DNA of 34,463 bases from positions 1 through 34,463 of IMG/VR virus record IMGVR_UViG_3300045996_001706; one strand, written 5' to 3'. The notes beneath the pieces are model-generated. The model saw only the letters and a program-made list of their open reading frames with translations, searched no databases and had not been told where the DNA came from. The position numbers and the translations under genes are program-made. How positions within the stretch are numbered: the first letter of the stretch is position 1; every line of letters begins with the position of its first letter. Below, one piece after another: positions 16,416-22,199 of this stretch. This DNA comes from a virus.

Positions 16416-16443
16416 CTAACTTCTACCTAATCAGATGGGTGGG

Positions 16444-16460
16444 ACTTACATCATGTAAGT
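16444..16460. promoter_or_regulatory. operator-like palindrome, copy 1
   Basis: ACTTACAT-C-ATGTAAGT is a perfect 17-bp palindrome around one central base. It is repeated at 19298-19314 and, with an imperfect right arm, at 22183-22199. It is located upstream of the 16410 promoter and just after a terminator, as expected for a regulator-binding site. Confidence 0.65.
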
Positions 16461-16487: not shown

Positions 16488-16524
16488 AAAAAAAATGGGG
16501 GCCAAGGATTGCTCCTTGACCCCC
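16488..16524 (-). terminator. rho-independent terminator of the leftward accessory operon
   Basis: Read on the minus strand: an 11-bp stem (plus 16514-16524 with 16497-16507, one mismatch), a 6-base loop, then a run of eight U (plus A-run 16488-16495). It lies 24 bases after the stop of the 16548 gene and isolates the next promoter. Confidence 0.85.
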
Positions 16525-16547: not shown

Positions 16548-16922
16548 TCACCCTACCGCCGGCATTTGATAGGGCGGACCTCGGCGATGTCGTTGAAATT
16601 CCAGATGGAGCGCCTTCAGGCGCTTCATCTCCAGTCGGCGTTCCGTGCGGGACATTCCTTGCGTATAGTCGAAGTGCTCCACGCATCGCTTCGCCAACGT
16701 GTCCCACGCCCGCTGTTCAATCAGCATGTGGCAGTGCTCGCAGGCGGCCCAATCCGTGATGGATTCGTGGATCAGTCGCCCCGGTATCTGAAAGATGCCC
16801 GGCGTGAACGACTCGCAGGGATACGTCCACACCGTCTGTTGGTAGAGCTGCTGACAACAGAAGTCACAGCGGGCCTCTTCAGGCCGATCACCCCCAAGGG
16901 TAATGGTGACATCAGGGCTCAT
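16548..16922 (-). CDS. zinc-ribbon hypothetical protein
   Basis: 124 residues. CDFCCQ near 19-24 and CEHCHMLIE near 61-69 make a two-knuckle zinc site, with VWTYPCESF between them; this CDFC...WAYPC...WAACxxCH pattern is common in phage and actinobacterial small proteins of unknown role. A basic helical tail follows (RRLEMKRLKALHLEFQRHR). Start overlaps the preceding stop (ATGA); last gene before a strong terminator. Confidence 0.7.
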   Translation of the reverse strand: MSPDVTITLGGDRPEEARCDFCCQQLYQQTVWTYPCESFTPGIFQIPGRLIHESITDWAACEHCHMLIEQRAWDTLAKRCVEHFDYTQGMSRTERRLEMKRLKALHLEFQRHRRGPPYQMPAVG

Positions 16923-17449
16923 GCTTCACCCTTATGGTCATCGTGAAAGGCCCGATCGAACCAGCCTTCCGCCATCAGGTCGGTCGTGTCGACGACCGGC
17001 TTCAGCGCGCGGTAGCGCTGCCCTTTGGTTGTGGTCGGCTTCAGCGCCCACCCTTGAAACCGCCGGGAGCCATCATGCCCATAGGCGAAGGTAAACAGGG
17101 TATCCACCCGGTCAGGCTCCTCCGCAATGGGCTTGTCATACGTCAGCCCATGCTTCTTTATGTGCTCCTGCGCCTCCTTGCCCCTCATTCGCTTCATCCA
17201 GGCTTCAGAGACCAGGATCGCCCCATCAAAGTAGCCCGCGCCTCGCACGGCCCGGATCGTCATGATGATGATGGCTTGCTTGGCCGTCCGTTCAGTGGAA
17301 AACGGCGCGGCGTTGTAGTCGAGGCCCAGGATCTGCTCCTCGCCCTCCCGCTTCAGATGCACATAGCAGGTGGCATGGATCTCCTCGCCCCGCTTCAGCC
17401 GCGCGTCCGCCATCTCCACGGCCTTCGCAATCAGTTCATCGGCAGTCAT
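16919..17449 (-). CDS. hypothetical 176-residue protein
   Basis: Starts at 17449 after GGGAGGG, the leader style shared by this whole region. Mixed alpha/beta: helical N-terminus (MTADELIAKAVEMADARLK), a strand core (ATCYVHLKREG, QAIIIMTIRAVRGAG, DGAILVSEAWMKR). No catalytic motif recognised. Its leader abuts the left arm of inverted-repeat block B. Confidence 0.6.
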   Translation of the reverse strand: MTADELIAKAVEMADARLKRGEEIHATCYVHLKREGEEQILGLDYNAAPFSTERTAKQAIIIMTIRAVRGAGYFDGAILVSEAWMKRMRGKEAQEHIKKHGLTYDKPIAEEPDRVDTLFTFAYGHDGSRRFQGWALKPTTTKGQRYRALKPVVDTTDLMAEGWFDRAFHDDHKGEA

Positions 17450-17478
17450 GTCGTTCCCTCCCTTGTGGTTCCTGAAAT

Positions 17479-17503
17479 CAGAGTCAGCCGAATGAAGGCG
17501 GGT
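17479..17503 (+). repeat. inverted repeat B, left arm
   Basis: 25-bp arm, reverse complement of 18688-18712 with 2 mismatches. Begins CAGAGTCAGCC and ends GGCGGGT. It follows the last gene of a four-gene leftward block, so it sits in the 3' end of that block's transcript. An extra TTCAGG match extends outward with a 2-base gap. Confidence 0.85.
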
Positions 17504-17512
17504 CGGTTCAGG

Positions 17513-17716
17513 TTATTTCCTCAAGCGTCGCTTCAGGGCCTTCAACGCTTTGACGAGCGCGGCGAGTTCAGTGTGTTGTTCCATGTGCCCATGCTGCAAG
17601 CCCATTTGATAGGCCACTTCACAGGGCGCACAGAGCGCTCGGTTCGCGGACGCTTGCGCGGCCGAGACCGCTTCATTCGTGCACAGCGGATTCCCGCAGT
17701 TAACTGGGCGGTTCAT
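17513..17716 (-). CDS. 67-residue zinc-finger-like protein
   Basis: N-terminal CGNPLC (7-12) and CAPC (29-32) form a possible zinc site; the C-terminal half is helix with a basic end (LVKALKALKRRLRK). Start at 17716 lies inside the end of the upstream gene (17-base overlap). No family recognised; probably a small regulator or accessory protein. Confidence 0.6.
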   Translation of the reverse strand: MNRPVNCGNPLCTNEAVSAAQASANRALCAPCEVAYQMGLQHGHMEQHTELAALVKALKALKRRLRK

Positions 17717-17942
17717 TGTTCCCCGCCCTTCTTCGGTTCATGACTTCCTTGCCCAAGAGAATCGCCACTTCCACGAGCTTGACGCGATTGGCTTTCGCCT
17801 GGCCAAGTGTTTTGATGACTTCAGGATTCCCCAGGAGCCCCTTCAGCGCCGCCGCGACGTAGAGATCATTCGCGCGGGCTGCATGAGCATAGAAGTCCGT
17901 CGCCACGGACAGATGCGCCATTTCAATCTGTGTGATCGTCAT
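17700..17942 (-). CDS. hypothetical helical protein
   Basis: 80 residues, start at 17942 preceded by AGGGAGG. All-helical (MAHLSVATDFYAHAARANDL, VVAA-type helices, LVEVAILLGKEVMNRRR). No motif recognised. Part of inverted-repeat block B. Confidence 0.6.
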   Translation of the reverse strand: MTITQIEMAHLSVATDFYAHAARANDLYVAAALKGLLGNPEVIKTLGQAKANRVKLVEVAILLGKEVMNRRRAGNNEPPS

Positions 17943-18319
17943 GGGTTGCCTCCCTCCTGTGGGATTGGCAGTCCGATCTCTCGCGCCACGCTCTCTTCAA
18001 TGAACGCGGCGTTCCCGGTAATGCCCATCCGTTCAGCGGCTTCACGTTTGATACAGTGAATCCGGCCGACGCGATACGGGTTCGCTTTATCCGTGCCATC
18101 CCGCACTTCAACGAGCACGACGCCTATCGCCATCATTTTCTTGCACTCGTCACAGATGGCTCCGGGGATCACCCCCTTGCGTGGCGCTTCAGCGTCACCC
18201 GGCAGATGACCTAACAAGGCAATCTCGTTAGTGTCACCCGCGCAGAGCGAGCATTGCACCATCATGGGGTTCACCCCATGCTTCTTGCTGAGTCTGATGC
18301 TTCCCTTCTTTGGTGTCAT
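17939..18319 (-). CDS. conserved phage zinc protein
   Basis: 126 residues. KHGVNPMMVQCSLCAGDTNE, ALLGHLPGDAEAP, CDECKKMMAIGVVLVEV and NPYRVGR follow the order of a common phage family of unknown function in which two CxxC pairs flank an LPGDAEAP motif. Metal binding is likely. Start overlap with the gene below is ATGA. Confidence 0.75.
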   Translation of the reverse strand: MTPKKGSIRLSKKHGVNPMMVQCSLCAGDTNEIALLGHLPGDAEAPRKGVIPGAICDECKKMMAIGVVLVEVRDGTDKANPYRVGRIHCIKREAAERMGITGNAAFIEESVAREIGLPIPQEGGNP

Positions 18320-18331
18320 GGTTCAGCCTCT

Positions 18332-18673
18332 TCAAAAGCAGGTCGTTGTGATTTGGTCGCCGATGATGAGTGAATTGCATCGGTTCATCGGCATGGGTAC
18401 GATCGGAGGGGCAGTATACCGAGGGGATGGCGTCGATGGGTTCAGTACGAAGGGCACCATCGGTACCATCGGGGCTGACCAATTGACACAGCGATCGGCC
18501 ACCCCGTTGTAGTCGAAGTCAGGTCCATAGAGCGCCTGACATCGCGCCTTCCCTTCAGCCATATAGCTGCACCCGGCTAACAGAGATAGCAGCAGCAAGA
18601 TCACGACGGGGCCTGCTATCTTCAGCACACCCGATCGGACACTCTTCAGATCGTCGGTCCGTTCGAGTATCAT
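18332..18673 (-). CDS. small lipoprotein
   Basis: 113 residues from ATG 18673 with AAAGGA 6 bases upstream (TTG 18679 also possible). Residues 16-35 form a lipoprotein signal ending LSLLAGC, with lipidated Cys35, then a short Cys-containing ectodomain and Pro-rich stretch (MVPMVPFVLNPSTPSP). It would be anchored in the envelope of the host. It might be an outer-membrane spanin or an exclusion lipoprotein, but there is no paired inner-membrane spanin. First gene of block B. Confidence 0.75.
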   Translation of the reverse strand: MILERTDDLKSVRSGVLKIAGPVVILLLLSLLAGCSYMAEGKARCQALYGPDFDYNGVADRCVNWSAPMVPMVPFVLNPSTPSPRYTAPPIVPMPMNRCNSLIIGDQITTTCF

Positions 18674-18687
18674 GTTCAATCCTTTCT

Positions 18688-18712
18688 ACCCGCCCTCGTT
18701 CGGCTGACTCTG
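18688..18712 (+). repeat. inverted repeat B, right arm
   Basis: Begins ACCCGCCCTCG and ends GCTGACTCTG; pairs with 17479-17503 at 23 of 25 positions. It lies in the 5' leader of the lipoprotein gene. It also pairs less perfectly with the neighbouring arm at 18730-18758, giving a local 19-bp hairpin. Confidence 0.85.
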
Positions 18713-18729
18713 TTCAGGTGTTGGCGTGT

Positions 18730-18758
18730 CGAATGGTTCAGCCGCACGAAGGCGGGCG
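18730..18758 (+). repeat. inverted repeat C, left arm
   Basis: 29-bp arm beginning CGAATGGTTCAGCC and ending GGCGGGCG; reverse complement of 19216-19244 at 25 of 29 positions. It lies just past the 3' end of the gene at 18765. Confidence 0.8.
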
Positions 18759-18764
18759 TTCGCT

Positions 18765-19202
18765 TCAGTTCGGTGGTAGGACTTCGGTAATGTGCAGGAC
18801 CATGACCCGCCACAAGGGGAAAAGGAGTTCGCGCATTTTAGCGCGCTTCGACGGGTCCAGGATGTACTGATGGTCACAGCTTCGACTGATAATCCGCTTC
18901 AGCGGATACTCGTCACTGGGGTCACTGCGGGCGAATTCCACATCTTCATAGCATTCCGCACACGCGGCGAGCTTCCGAGACCGTTCAAGAAACCGGCCGA
19001 CAAACATGGGCGGCAAGCGCGCATTAGACACGACATACACGAATTGCACCGGCTTCCCATAGCAGAAATCACATTTCGGTTCACCGGCGGCGACAATCTT
19101 CACGAGGCCACAGTCAGGACAGGCCAGGTGATGGTTGTCGTTCTTGGATTCGATCGGTTCAACGTCGCCTTGGAATTGGCACTGGTTACACTTCAGAAAC
19201 AT
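18765..19202 (-). CDS. multi-zinc-knuckle protein
   Basis: 145 residues with four CxxC pairs: CNQC (5-8), CPDC (28-31), CDFC (44-47) and CAEC (81-84), so probably two zinc ribbons. The CDFC part resembles the family at 16548. Leader GGAGGGAAGCAATG is shared with other cassette genes. It is the only gene of block C and lies between matched inverted repeats. Function unknown; nucleic-acid or protein binding is plausible. Confidence 0.7.
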   Translation of the reverse strand: MFLKCNQCQFQGDVEPIESKNDNHHLACPDCGLVKIVAAGEPKCDFCYGKPVQFVYVVSNARLPPMFVGRFLERSRKLAACAECYEDVEFARSDPSDEYPLKRIISRSCDHQYILDPSKRAKMRELLFPLWRVMVLHITEVLPPN

Positions 19203-19215
19203 TGCTTCCCTCCTT

Positions 19216-19244
19216 CACCCGCCCTCGCGTGGCTGAACCATTCG
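19216..19244 (+). repeat. inverted repeat C, right arm
   Basis: Begins CACCCGCCCTCG and ends GCTGAACCATTCG; matches the C left arm at 25 of 29 positions. It directly adjoins the D left arm, and the joined 19216-19269 segment is an imperfect inverted copy of 20124-20176. Confidence 0.8.
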
Positions 19245-19247
19245 GTG

Positions 19248-19269
19248 ATCGATGCCGCGCTGATTCCCC
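19248..19269 (+). repeat. inverted repeat D, left arm
   Basis: 22-bp arm beginning ATCGATGCCGC; reverse complement of 20124-20145 with one mismatch. It lies downstream of the ParB-like gene, beyond the palindrome at 19298. Confidence 0.85.
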
Positions 19270-19297
19270 CCCTGGTGTTCAGGTACTTAGGTACTAG

Positions 19298-19314
19298 ACT
19301 TACATGATGTAAGT
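19298..19314. promoter_or_regulatory. operator- or parS-like palindrome, copy 2
   Basis: ACTTACAT-G-ATGTAAGT, a perfect 17-bp palindrome identical to 16444-16460 apart from orientation of the centre. It is flanked by TACTTAGG on both sides (19284-19291 and 19315-19322). It abuts the 3' end of the ParB-like gene. Confidence 0.7.
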
Positions 19315-19317
19315 TAC

Positions 19318-20094
19318 TTAGGCGGCCTTCTTCATCTTGCTCGGCCGGGCCAGGTGCAGGTGCTTCACGAGGTCATCGTGTAACCCCTTCAGCGCCAGCA
19401 TGGCCGCTTCGATGATCCCCACGTGCTGCACGGTGCTGCTCGTCAAGAGCAGTTCAGCGCCATTGGTCACGGCGATCGGAATCACCCGCAGCGCTTCGTA
19501 GAATCCCGGCACGGTGCCAATGGCTTCTTTGACGCGCTGTTCAGTGGCCGTGCCCCGGGCAACGCGGGATTCATGCGTCTTGCCTTCATTGGCCTTGCCC
19601 GCTTGCCCTTCCTTTTGCAGGCCGCGGATAATCCGGCTGATGGACGCTTCCGTCAGGTTCACCAATTGCGCGATCTGCTTGTTCTTCATCCGGCGGCGCG
19701 ACAGCTCTTTAATCCGCGTATCGCGTTCCGCCGCTGTGACATCCTTGCCACGTCCCATATTGCGGCGCAGCATATCTGCCAAGGCCAAGTTCTCGGCATC
19801 TTTCGGTGTTTCCCCTTCGTAGGCGACCTCTTCAACGGGCAGACTCTTCAGGCCTGCCACTTCAGCCGCATAGACACGCAGGTAGCCGTCGACTAACAGC
19901 TTCCCTGTCGGATTCCATTCAGTGATGCCGGTCGTGCCGACGATCACTGGCGGAAATTCGGTCCCCTCCTTCATCAGTCGTGCATATTCCTCAATCACTT
20001 TGCCGTTCTGCGCATTGTTTTTGCGCAGGACAAAGGCCGGTTGAATGCACTCTAGCAATTGCTTCAGTGTCAGATGCTTCTGCTTCGTGCTCAT
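19318..20094 (-). CDS. ParB-like DNA-binding protein
   Basis: 258 residues from ATG 20094 after GAGGGA; the frame extends to 20163 but that part is repeat DNA. Residues 30-110 resemble the ParB/sulfiredoxin N-terminal fold (YARLMKEGTEFPPVIVG, GKLLVDGYLRVYAAEVAGLK, ADMLRRNMGRG). A helix-turn-helix follows (MKNKQIAQLVNLTEASISRI), then an acidic linker and a helical C-terminal domain for dimerisation. ParB-type proteins bind palindromic sites and act in partition or gene control. No ParA partner is present, so a regulatory role, perhaps on the ACTTACAT palindromes, is my inference. Single gene of block D. Confidence 0.75.
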   Translation of the reverse strand: MSTKQKHLTLKQLLECIQPAFVLRKNNAQNGKVIEEYARLMKEGTEFPPVIVGTTGITEWNPTGKLLVDGYLRVYAAEVAGLKSLPVEEVAYEGETPKDAENLALADMLRRNMGRGKDVTAAERDTRIKELSRRRMKNKQIAQLVNLTEASISRIIRGLQKEGQAGKANEGKTHESRVARGTATEQRVKEAIGTVPGFYEALRVIPIAVTNGAELLLTSSTVQHVGIIEAAMLALKGLHDDLVKHLHLARPSKMKKAA

Positions 20095-20123
20095 GCTTCC
20101 CTCGTGGTGGTGGTTTGTAAGGA

Positions 20124-20145
20124 GGGGAATCAGTGCGGCATCGAT
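20124..20145 (+). repeat. inverted repeat D, right arm
   Basis: Begins GGGGAATCAG and ends GGCATCGAT; pairs with 19248-19269 at 21 of 22 positions. It lies 30 bases upstream of the ParB-like start codon. Confidence 0.85.
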
Positions 20146-20147
20146 CT

Positions 20148-20176
20148 GGAATGCTTCAGCCAAGAAAGGCGGGTCC
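20148..20176 (+). repeat. inverted repeat E, left arm
   Basis: Begins GGAATGCTTCAGCC and ends GGCGGGTCC; reverse complement of 20931-20959 with 2 mismatches in 29. It lies just past the last gene of block E and touches the D right arm. Confidence 0.9.
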
Positions 20177-20186
20177 GGGTTTGCGT

Positions 20187-20429
20187 TTAGGTGTCTTGGG
20201 AGAATCCGCCGTCAGGATCTGGCGGGTTTAGTTCATCGTATGGATTGCCGTCAAACAGCTTCGCCAGTGGAGCGAAGGCAATCTCTGTCTCGCTCCGGTT
20301 CAGCGCGACGATAACATAGACCAGCTTATGGCTGGCTTTGTCTTGGCACTCCACGAGCGCCACATCGCCGTTCTTAACCGCTTCAAGGAGCAGGTTGAAG
20401 TTGTGTATGTAGCCCTCTGGGATCGCCAT
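20187..20429 (-). CDS. DUF6117-like small protein
   Basis: 80 residues. MAIPEGYIHNFNLLLEAVKN then DVALVECQDK, VYVIVALN and GNPYDELNPPDPDGG follow the pattern of a small phage/plasmid family (DUF6117, from memory) of unknown function. Last gene of block E. Confidence 0.65.
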   Translation of the reverse strand: MAIPEGYIHNFNLLLEAVKNGDVALVECQDKASHKLVYVIVALNRSETEIAFAPLAKLFDGNPYDELNPPDPDGGFSQDT

Positions 20430-20441
20430 GCCCGTTTCCTT

Positions 20442-20669
20442 TCAGATCACAATAAACCCTTCATCGATCAGCTTCCGGACGATCTCACTGATGTAGCGGT
20501 GTTCAATCGCCAGGGCGTCACCGAAGAACTGATAGGGTTCGGCGTGGACCTCGTGTTTCATCCACGCCTTGGCCCTCGGCGTATGCGGCCGCAACAGGAA
20601 CAGACTGCCGTGGTTTTCCACTGAGAAGTCCGCCGGTTGATTCAGTTTAGGTTTGTTTGGTTTTGCCAT
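20442..20669 (-). CDS. conserved phage hypothetical protein
   Basis: 75 residues starting MAKPNKPKLN at 20669, chosen for the GAGGG 9 bases upstream; a longer frame exists but overlaps the neighbour. DFSVENHGSLFLLRPHTPRA then FFGDALAIEHRYISEIV match a small phage accessory family in which an AKAW segment precedes VEHRY. Function unknown. Overlaps the upstream gene's end by 23 bases. Confidence 0.65.
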   Translation of the reverse strand: MAKPNKPKLNQPADFSVENHGSLFLLRPHTPRAKAWMKHEVHAEPYQFFGDALAIEHRYISEIVRKLIDEGFIVI

Positions 20670-20913
20670 CGCCGCCCTCGTCATAGTCGGTTTGGATGAG
20701 GTAGGCATTCTTTTTAATCTCATGCACGTACACGTCGCCGAGTTCCCCTTCAGGCACATGCGGCGTCTTCACCCAGCAAAACCATCGGGCATAGGGCTTG
20801 GTATCATCGGCTTGCCACTTCTTCAGGACGTGCCATTGCCACGACCCATCGTGTGACTTCCACACTTCATACGGTCGCTCTTTCGGTCGTGATTTTGCGC
20901 ATGTGTTCTTCAT
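20647..20913 (-). CDS. conserved phage hypothetical protein
   Basis: 88 residues from ATG 20913 with leader GGAGGGAAGCAATG. PYEVWKSHDGSWQWHVLKKW, YARWFCWVKTP and ELGDVYVHEIK are a recognisable phage pattern of unknown role, aromatic and strand-rich. First gene of block E. Confidence 0.7.
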   Translation of the reverse strand: MKNTCAKSRPKERPYEVWKSHDGSWQWHVLKKWQADDTKPYARWFCWVKTPHVPEGELGDVYVHEIKKNAYLIQTDYDEGGDGKTKQT

Positions 20914-20930
20914 TGCTTCCCTCCGATCAT

Positions 20931-20959
20931 GGACCCGCCCTTGTTGGCTGAAGCATTCC
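20931..20959 (+). repeat. inverted repeat E, right arm
   Basis: Begins GGACCCGCCC and ends GCTGAAGCATTCC; pairs with 20148-20176 at 27 of 29 positions. It lies in the 5' leader of block E. Confidence 0.9.
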
Positions 20960-20963
20960 ATTT

Positions 20964-20989
20964 CGGCTTATCCGGTTTCATGGAGTAGC
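20964..20989 (+). repeat. inverted repeat F, left arm
   Basis: Begins CGGCTTATCCGG and ends GGAGTAGC; reverse complement of 21568-21593 with 2 mismatches in 26. Unrelated in sequence to the arms of blocks B-E, yet placed in the same position. Confidence 0.9.
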
Positions 20990-20999
20990 AGGGCGTGGG

Positions 21000-21290
21000 C
21001 TAGGATTTGGATGTCAGGTCGATACTGCGTTCCGTGCAGATGTGATGCGCGTCGGGATAACTGAGTCCGTCTTTCGTCGCTAAGTGGTAAATCTGTTCAG
21101 CAAACAGTCTGACGATCGGATGCGTATTCGCATAGTGCGTGCCCTTGCCCGTCGCGTTCGCTTCATTCCAGATCTTTGCGACGATGCGACTGAGCGTATG
21201 CACAATGCCGCTCAGATTACAGGCGGACTGTGCATCAAGCGCCCATTGATAATCATCAGCCGTGGGGAAGAGTTCTTCATCGGTCTTCAT
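21000..21290 (-). CDS. conserved phage hypothetical protein
   Basis: 96 residues, start overlapping the PEP-CTERM gene's stop (ATGA). Helical, with ACNLSGIVHTLSRIVAKIW, then GTHYANTHPIVRLFAEQIYH; the NxHPI motif after a long helix is familiar from phage accessory proteins of unknown function. Last gene of block F. Confidence 0.65.
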   Translation of the reverse strand: MKTDEELFPTADDYQWALDAQSACNLSGIVHTLSRIVAKIWNEANATGKGTHYANTHPIVRLFAEQIYHLATKDGLSYPDAHHICTERSIDLTSKS

Positions 21291-21541
21291 CGCAGCGCCC
21301 GTTTCTTCCTGTCACTCTCTTCCATCTTCGTGAAGCATCGCAAGCCGAGTACCACGTTCAGCACAATTAGAATCGCAAGCAGGCTTGCAACCAGGATAAA
21401 GGTGGACGGCTCAGGAACGGTGGTCACTGGCGGATTAAAGCCGATGCCTCCCGTTCCTGGCGTGATTCGAATATCTTCAGCGTGGGCCGTCGATACCAAC
21501 AAAAAAAGCGCCACGAGGGCGCTTAATCCGTGCTTCTTCAT
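21287..21541 (-). CDS. small secreted protein with PEP-CTERM sorting signal
   Basis: 84 residues. An N-terminal Sec signal peptide (MKKHGLSALVALFLLVSTAH, cleavage after AHA) is followed by a 20-residue mature part, then VPEPST at 42-47, a transmembrane helix to about 67 and Arg68. This is the PEP-CTERM arrangement processed by exosortases in exopolysaccharide-producing Gram-negative bacteria. Unlike the usual signal, which stops 1-4 residues after the Arg, a 16-residue charged tail follows. Leader GAGGGAAGC precedes the ATG. First gene of block F, nearest the control region. Confidence 0.75.
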   Translation of the reverse strand: MKKHGLSALVALFLLVSTAHAEDIRITPGTGGIGFNPPVTTVPEPSTFILVASLLAILIVLNVVLGLRCFTKMEESDRKKRALR

Positions 21542-21567
21542 TGTTGCTTCCCTCTTCTTTCTGCCCC

Positions 21568-21593
21568 GCTACCCCGTGAAACCGGATAAGCCG
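21568..21593 (+). repeat. inverted repeat F, right arm
   Basis: Begins GCTACCCCGTG and ends GATAAGCCG; matches 20964-20989 at 24 of 26 positions. It lies in the leader of the PEP-CTERM gene and marks the right end of the cassette series. Confidence 0.9.
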
Positions 21594-21953
21594 TACGCCT
21601 TGCTTAAGGGCTATAGTTAGCGTCACGCCATGCCGCCTATTAGGGCCGGAGCTGTCCTACCTGACTGACGATGCGATACAGTCGGCCTGAGAATTTAGAT
21701 CTCAGGACTTACGCTAAGACCGTTGTCAGCTTGATAGGTCCATGGTTTTTGCAAGGGCTACACGTTTTTTCCCGGCAGTCCCTCGTGACGCCTAAAGCGT
21801 GGGGTTGTTCGCCGATAGTGACTCTCCTTTCTTTCGTCCGTTCTCTGTACCGTCGTAGACAGGGCTAGATAATGCAGATGCTATGCCATCATTAGATAGG
21901 GATACGTAGAGGGGAAAAGACTAGGGAATCAGGGGAACCGTAGTTCTATGGGG

Positions 21954-22054
21954 TGTCTCATGAGACAGAACTGTCTCAAAACACCCTGTCTCATGTCTCA
22001 CCGAACTGTCTCGTGCGACGTCTCACGAGGGCGTGAGACACTGATGGTGAGACA
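21954..22054. repeat. array of nine TGTCTCA/TGAGACA sites
   Basis: Sites at 21954, 21961 (inverted), 21972, 21987, 21994, 22007 (TGTCTCG), 22019 (CGTCTCA), 22034 (inverted) and 22048 (inverted), in 101 bases. Seven are exact. The first two form the 14-bp palindrome TGTCTCATGAGACA, and 22020-22039 makes an 8-bp stem. Such spacing is typical of iterons or multi-site operators. Confidence 0.85.
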
Positions 22055-22182
22055 GCACTAGGGGTAGGGGTGTGGTGGTCCTAGGACGTACTGCTAAAAG
22101 GTCAAATAAGCTGACAGGGCGTAAAGATTCTCGACACCTCTGGACACGTCTGCTAACTGCTCGCCGATACTCAGGAAAACCT

Positions 22183-22199
22183 ACTTACATGATGTAACC
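22183..22199. promoter_or_regulatory. operator-like palindrome, copy 3 (imperfect)
   Basis: ACTTACATGATGTAA followed by CC instead of GT, sharing 15 bases with the perfect copies at 16444 and 19298. It lies about 90 bases before the strong rightward promoter. Confidence 0.6.

What the first reader, a model, noticed from the sequence alone, without database searches (positions are those of the whole stretch)
17479..21593. Five tandem gene blocks, each bracketed by its own matched inverted repeats
Arms: B 17479-17503/18688-18712 (23/25), C 18730-18758/19216-19244 (25/29), D 19248-19269/20124-20145 (21/22), E 20148-20176/20931-20959 (27/29), F 20964-20989/21568-21593 (24/26). The arms within a block match each other closely, while the arms of different blocks differ (F unrelated; B ends CTGACTCTG, C CTGAACCATTC, E CTGAAGCATTCC). 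Adjacent blocks abut. Each leftward transcript would have complementary 5' and 3' ends. I know no described system with this layout; it could be RNA end-pairing, mobile gene cassettes, or invertible units.
Basis: seen in the sequence. Interest (0 to 1): 0.9.

Follow-up and report, generated by a model that had tools for sequence, protein, structure and literature searches.

The report
Phage genes bracketed by matched RNA arms
In one uncultivated phage, five neighbouring gene groups in one leftward operon are each closed by their own pair of complementary 25-31-base arms, one just before the first ribosome-binding site and one just after the last stop codon, so the long message should fold into five end-paired segments that are probably cut apart or kept separate as RNA.

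Summary
A detector for inverted repeats of at least 20 nt and 85% match finds exactly five in the 34.5 kb window, all in this chain. Sixty shuffles of the window gave one weaker hit in total, and about 0.8 Mb of other sequence gave four, none chained. All ten arms lie between genes: 14-25 nt before the start codon of the first gene of each block, and 5-10 nt (44 in D) after the stop codon of the last. Adjacent stems lie 0-3 nt apart (17 between C and B). A minimum-energy fold of the whole leftward transcript forms all five stems. Three stems (B, C, E) share an ancestor. Between them, five pairs differ by double compensatory changes and three more are gained or lost on both sides, while an ancestral G-U wobble survives in all three. 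That argues for selected pairing and against one arm copying the other. No transposase-like common end or recombinase was found. Best reading: long-range stems, like the rRNA processing stems cut by RNase III, applied to a chain of phage mRNA units. Pairing is well supported; cutting by RNase III is inferred. No relative of this region was found, so cross-genome covariation is untested.

The parts
21563..21593 (-). 5' arm of block F, 21 nt before the start codon of the first gene
20964..20994 (-). 3' arm of block F, 5 nt after the stop codon; 28/31 complementary to the 5' arm
21000..21541 (-). block F genes: 21287-21541 (84 aa, signal peptide and PEP-CTERM-like tail) and 21000-21290 (96 aa), overlapping
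20931..20960 (-). 5' arm of block E, 17 nt before the start codon
20147..20176 (-). 3' arm of block E, 10 nt after the stop codon; 28/30 complementary
20187..20913 (-). block E genes: 20647-20913, 20442-20669, 20187-20429 (DUF6117)
20120..20146 (-). 5' arm of block D, 25 nt before the start codon; abuts the 3' arm of E with no gap
19247..19273 (-). 3' arm of block D, 44 nt after the stop codon; 25/27 complementary
19318..20094 (-). block D gene, ParB-like DNA-binding protein (258 aa)
   Evidence: phrog_1033 ParB-like partition protein, E 5.9e-8
19218..19244 (-). 5' arm of block C, 15 nt before the start codon
18730..18756 (-). 3' arm of block C, 8 nt after the stop codon; 24/27 complementary
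18765..19202 (-). block C gene, 145 aa, paired-cysteine (zinc-ribbon-like) protein
   Evidence: no family match
18688..18712 (-). 5' arm of block B, 14 nt before the start codon
17479..17503 (-). 3' arm of block B, 9 nt after the stop codon; 23/25 complementary
17513..18673 (-). block B genes: 18332-18673 (lipoprotein-like), 17939-18319, 17700-17942, 17513-17716
   Evidence: 17939-18319 has distant homologues in other phages
16548..17449 (-). block A genes (16919-17449, 16548-16922): last unit of the operon, not bracketed by arms
16497..16524 (-). strong intrinsic terminator closing the leftward operon after block A (12-pair stem, run of T)

Best explanation
Blocks F-E-D-C-B-A are one leftward operon transcribed towards the terminator at 16524-16497. 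In the RNA, the 5' arm of each of the first five blocks pairs with its own 3' arm, so that each translational unit becomes a loop of about 0.45-1.2 kb closed by a stem of 25-31 bp, with stems stacked end to end. The stem starts just upstream of the first Shine-Dalgarno site, leaving it free, and just downstream of the last stop codon. Most likely the stems are cut by the host RNase III, as the pre-16S and pre-23S rRNA stems are, releasing five separate mRNAs whose 5' and 3' ends stay paired with each other and so resist exonucleases and 5'-end-dependent decay; the last unit, A, ends in the terminator instead. Shown: the repeats, their placement, their predicted pairing and the compensatory changes among related stems. 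Inferred: that the operon is one transcript, that the stems form in the cell, that RNase III cuts them, and that stability is the benefit. A part of the benefit could equally be a closed loop that puts stop and start codons close together.
For: Five repeats far beyond chance, all in one chain. Ten of ten arms in the short gaps between genes, hugging start and stop codons with the Shine-Dalgarno site outside the stem. Genes inside the multi-gene blocks overlap or nearly touch, so blocks coincide with translational units. The minimum-energy fold of the 5,151-nt transcript forms 24/25, 26/27, 26/27, 29/35 and 30/31 of the arm positions, and the mean pair probability of each stem is 0.94-0.96 when its block is folded alone. 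Own-arm duplex energies are -47 to -59 kcal/mol; every cross-pairing is -38 or weaker. B, C and E stems are paralogous: five pairs differ by double Watson-Crick changes, three pairs are inserted or deleted on both arms, yet a G-U wobble at column 20 is kept in all three, which a simple copying of one arm onto the other would have erased. Every stem is 25-31 bp, more than two helical turns, longer than closure alone needs. The unbracketed last unit is the one followed by a terminator. Precedents: complementary sequences about 1,700 nt apart form the RNase III site of E. coli pre-rRNA (Young and Steitz 1978, listed in PMC8708148), with loops of up to thousands of nt (PMC8708148); T7 mRNA is matured and protected by RNase III cutting (PMC8708148).
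Against: No RNA data. No relative of the region was found, so covariation rests on three paralogous stems in one genome. Non-Watson-Crick positions are only slightly biased to the transcribed strand: 7 G-U against 4 A-C, which is not significant, and the opposite strand would pair almost as well. Each of F, D, C and B has one A-C mismatch near its middle and E a C-C. No promoter is identified. RNase III cutting of such stems can also destroy a message, as for icaR (PMC3868564).
Confidence: 0.5

Rival explanations
1. Closed-loop translation: the stems bring the stop codon of each unit next to its own start codon, so terminating ribosomes reload on the same unit; no cutting is needed.
For: The inner end of each stem lies 14-25 nt from the start codon and 5-10 nt from the stop codon (44 in D), placing the two close together in space; blocks coincide with translationally coupled units.
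Against: A much shorter stem would do; ribosomes ending 5-10 nt before the 3' arm would transiently open it; I know of no bacterial precedent.
Confidence: 0.2
2. Structural insulation or regulation: the stems keep the units of a long message from misfolding on each other, or control access to the ribosome-binding site as in icaR mRNA.
For: Own-arm pairing is about 10-50 kcal/mol better than any cross-pairing; icaR is a tested case of 5'-3' UTR pairing that blocks translation and invites RNase III (PMC3868564).
Against: Here the Shine-Dalgarno site lies outside the stem, unlike icaR; five co-ordinated stems are more than insulation would need.
Confidence: 0.15
3. DNA-level cassettes: each block is a mobile or invertible unit with terminal inverted repeats, moved by a transposase, recombinase or by the phage's own annealing recombination.
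For: Abutting units with terminal inverted repeats; three related arm pairs round unrelated genes; the phage carries an exonuclease and an Erf-like annealing protein.
Against: D and F arms share nothing with B, C and E, so there is no common end to recognise; all units point the same way; arms are placed by start and stop codons; no transposase or site-specific recombinase among scanned ORFs; no homologous locus with a unit inverted or missing was found.
Confidence: 0.1
4. A repeated protein-binding or replication element that happens to sit between genes in both orientations.
For: B, C and E arms share a core, and dispersed elements of this kind exist, for example GTTAACCTTAAC in Erythrobacter phage vB_EliS-L02.
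Against: In that case all copies share one sequence; here the two arms of a block match each other far better than arms of other blocks, and D and F are unrelated.
Confidence: 0.05

Closest known systems
RNase III processing stems of bacterial pre-16S and pre-23S rRNA
   Same: Complementary sequences more than a kilobase apart flank a functional RNA, form a long stem and are placed in series in one transcript; the enclosed loop can be thousands of nt (PMC8708148).
   Different: There they bracket rRNA; here they bracket protein-coding units of a phage operon, five in a row, each with its own sequence, stems nearly touching. Cutting has not been shown here.
icaR mRNA 5'-3' UTR pairing, Staphylococcus aureus (PMC3868564)
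   Same: The 3' UTR of an mRNA pairs with its own 5' UTR and gives a double strand cut by RNase III.
   Different: icaR uses a short UCCCCUG motif that covers the Shine-Dalgarno site and lowers expression; here the stems are 25-31 bp, leave the Shine-Dalgarno site free and recur in five tandem units.
RNase III sites of the T7 mRNA, such as R1.1
   Same: A phage polycistronic message matured and protected by RNase III; imperfections in the stem limit cutting to one strand (PMC8708148).
   Different: T7 sites are local hairpins between genes, not stems whose two strands flank a gene block.
Extended start-associated sequences (ESAS) of cluster K mycobacteriophages (PMC3203893)
   Same: Imperfect inverted repeats tied to translation starts of non-structural phage genes in many copies.
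   Different: Both ESAS arms lie upstream of the gene, mostly 4-13 bp apart, and share one consensus; they do not bracket genes.

Membership tests
Long-range RNA processing stem (rRNA type) | Two complementary arms flank the functional unit in one transcript | tested here: met
   that there is one transcript is inferred from gene order and the terminator
Long-range RNA processing stem (rRNA type) | Stem long enough for RNase III (12 bp is enough for a single-strand cut; natural stems about 20 bp or more) | tested here: met
   25-31 bp, -47 to -59 kcal/mol; the 12-bp limit from PMC8708148, the usual length from general knowledge
Long-range RNA processing stem (rRNA type) | Pairing maintained by compensatory change | tested here: met
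   on three paralogous stems only; not testable across genomes (no relatives)
Long-range RNA processing stem (rRNA type) | Cut by RNase III within the stem | not testable with these tools
   needs RNA end mapping
icaR-type 5'-3' UTR regulation | Pairing covers the Shine-Dalgarno site | tested here: not met
   Shine-Dalgarno sites lie in the 14-25 nt between stem and start codon
Transposable unit or gene cassette with terminal inverted repeats | Common end sequence recognised by one enzyme | tested here: not met
   D and F arms unrelated to B, C and E
Transposable unit or gene cassette with terminal inverted repeats | Transposase or recombinase, target duplication, occupied and empty sites | tested here: inconclusive
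   no such enzyme found in scanned ORFs; no relatives for an empty-site test
Cluster K ESAS | Both repeats upstream of the start codon, short spacer, shared consensus | tested here: not met
   arms 461-1,184 nt apart, one at each end of the block; PMC3203893

The most novel reading that the evidence does not exclude
A phage operon built as a string of end-paired mRNA units, each with its own matched and mutually non-interfering stem, so that every translational unit is released or held as a closed loop. A second RNA-level signal, the UGAA(G/C) motif, covers the same transcript and stops at its ends. This would be a new way of organising a polycistronic message.
Probability: 0.4. Interest if true: 0.85.

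Novelty: new variant of a known kind. Interest (0 to 1): 0.72.

Why it matters
Long stems whose two strands flank a unit are a hallmark of rRNA precursors; I found no report of them as a serial device for mRNA. If the pairing is real in the cell, this phage shows a compact way to turn one transcript into several stable, separately expressed messages without promoters or terminators between them, and gives ready-made matched arm pairs to test whether closing an mRNA end to end stabilises it or boosts its translation in bacteria.

Tried and rejected
UGAA tetraloop hairpins as the cause of the CTGAA excess: rejected, 51 of 88 sites have no closing pair. Relatives by early proteins, by arm core, by arm plus Shine-Dalgarno and by the ParB-type palindrome: none carried the chain. 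Relatives by portal and terminase: one 91% portal match on a 5.6 kb contig without the early region, otherwise 25-32% relatives; none of the stretches fetched shows bracketed blocks. Distant homologues of one B and one E protein in Rhodobacter, Bacteroides and other phages are not bracketed. Strand test by G-U against A-C mismatches: inconclusive. Rfam: no match. Erythrobacter phage vB_EliS-L02 gave inverted repeats, but from one dispersed element. Literature searches for phage genes flanked by inverted repeats returned nothing.

Full report
What was checked. The window is a virus record from IMG/VR of 34,463 bases. It is a podovirus-like phage: SU10-type portal, large terminase and major head protein, a transglycosylase-domain internal protein, exonuclease and Erf-like annealing protein. 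A separate detector (arms of at least 20 nt, at least 85% match, within 2.5 kb) returns exactly these five and nothing else in the window. Sixty dinucleotide-preserving shuffles gave one hit in all, at the lowest score. About 0.8 Mb of other phage and bacterial DNA gave four hits, none in a chain of bracketed blocks.

Anatomy. All genes of the region run leftward. On that strand each of blocks F, E, D, C, B reads: 5' arm, 14-25 nt holding the Shine-Dalgarno site, genes, 5-10 nt (44 in D), 3' arm. The next block's 5' arm follows after 3 (F/E), 0 (E/D), 2 (D/C) and 17 (C/B) nt. Genes inside the multi-gene blocks overlap or lie about 12 nt apart, so a block is a translational unit. After B come two overlapping genes (A) without arms, then a strong intrinsic terminator at 16524-16497. 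There is hardly room for promoters between blocks, so one transcript from the 21.6-22.3 kb region is likely (inference).

Pairing. On the transcript strand the own-arm duplexes are worth -47 to -59 kcal/mol, and the best wrong pairing is -38. The minimum-energy structure of the 5,151-nt transcript contains all five stems. Folded block by block, the mean pair probability is 0.94-0.96. The opposite strand would pair nearly as well, so energy alone does not name the strand; 7 G-U against 4 A-C positions lean to the leftward transcript but not significantly.

Evolution. Arms B, C and E descend from one pair: the 5' arms share CAGCC...AGGGCGGGT and the 3' arms CCCGCCTT...GGCTG. Aligned as stems (one gap of the MAFFT alignment was placed by hand), 5 of 27 pairs differ by a full double change between blocks, and three more pairs are present or absent on both arms together. 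Close by, at column 20, all three keep the same G-U. If one arm were simply overwritten by the other, by gene conversion or template switching, this wobble would be gone; its survival beside double changes points to separate point mutations held together by selection for pairing. D and F stems have unrelated sequences in the same positions, so what is kept is complementarity, not a binding sequence.

Interpretation. The closest mechanism is the rRNA precursor: arms about 1,700 nt apart form an RNase III site in E. coli pre-rRNA (Young and Steitz 1978, in the reference list of PMC8708148). T7 message is matured and protected by RNase III (PMC8708148). In S. aureus icaR a 3' UTR pairs with the 5' UTR and is cut by RNase III (PMC3868564), but there the Shine-Dalgarno site is covered; here it is free. 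I therefore favour processing into end-paired, stable units, with a closed translational loop as a further or alternative benefit. Each stem has a mismatch near its middle (A-C in F, D, C, B; C-C in E), 10-14 pairs from the inner end. In T7 R1.1, forcing full complementarity changed single-strand cutting to double-strand cutting; whether imperfections act likewise here is open.

DNA-level readings. A transposon or recombinase would need common ends; D and F lack them. No recombinase or transposase was recognised among the ORFs scanned. The Erf-like protein could shuffle modules through short homologies, but that does not explain matched inverted arms at every start and stop.

Limits. No relative of the early region was found in IMG/VR, INPHARED or PLSDB, beyond distant homologues of single proteins. 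So the decisive cross-genome covariation test is undone, and everything rests on one metagenomic sequence. RNA ends, promoters, RNase III cutting and host are unknown. Not every ORF of the window was scanned against the family libraries.

A second signal on the same transcript. From 16.55 to 21.54 kb the leftward strand carries 88 TGAA against about 15 on the other strand; neighbouring regions have zero to two per 500 bases on that strand. CTGAA occurs 34 times in the genes against 13.6 expected after synonymous codon shuffling (z 8.7), and TGAAG and TGAAC are likewise in excess. The sites are not hairpin loops. The signal starts and stops with the operon, which suggests an RNA-level role; its meaning is unknown.

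Noticed in passing
window 16548-21541, minus strand: Strong strand-specific excess of TGAA followed by G or C (CTGAA 34 against 13.6 expected after synonymous shuffling) confined to this one operon, in two reading frames alike; not hairpin loops. Unexplained.
   Followed up: partly
window 16443-16460, 19297-19314, 22182-22199: Three copies of a palindrome ACTTACATSATGTAAGT (chance expectation about 0.1) at the start of the second leftward operon, right after the ParB-like gene, and in the early promoter region; probably the binding site of the ParB-like protein of block D acting as a regulator.
   Followed up: partly
window 21287-21541, minus strand: First gene of block F encodes a small secreted protein with a VPEPST-transmembrane-Arg tail resembling a PEP-CTERM sorting signal, unusual for a phage; no Pfam match.
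   Followed up: no
window 21506-21524, minus strand: Terminator-like hairpin with a run of T inside the first codons of the first gene of block F, a possible attenuator.
   Followed up: no
window 21940-22070: Cluster of TGTCTC/GAGACA repeats in both orientations in the divergent promoter region, looking like operators.
   Followed up: no
L009, L018-L022: Portal relatives: a 91% match on a 5.6 kb IMG/VR contig; otherwise prophage-like loci in Vampirovibrio genomes at 27-32%, hinting at a distant link to that group.
   Followed up: partly
L011 (MW495066): The record 'Microcystis phage MaAM05' (274 kb) carries hppA, KimA, pgcA and tRNA genes beside the portal gene and may be a bacterial chromosome piece with a prophage.
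   Followed up: no
L089 30900-32400 and 40495-42686: Erythrobacter phage vB_EliS-L02 has a dispersed element with core GTTAACCTTAAC in both orientations.
   Followed up: no
L041 4522-4545 and 6639-6662: Perfect 24-nt inverted repeat 2.1 kb apart in IMG/VR contig 3300034160_000024; possible insertion element or invertible segment.
   Followed up: no
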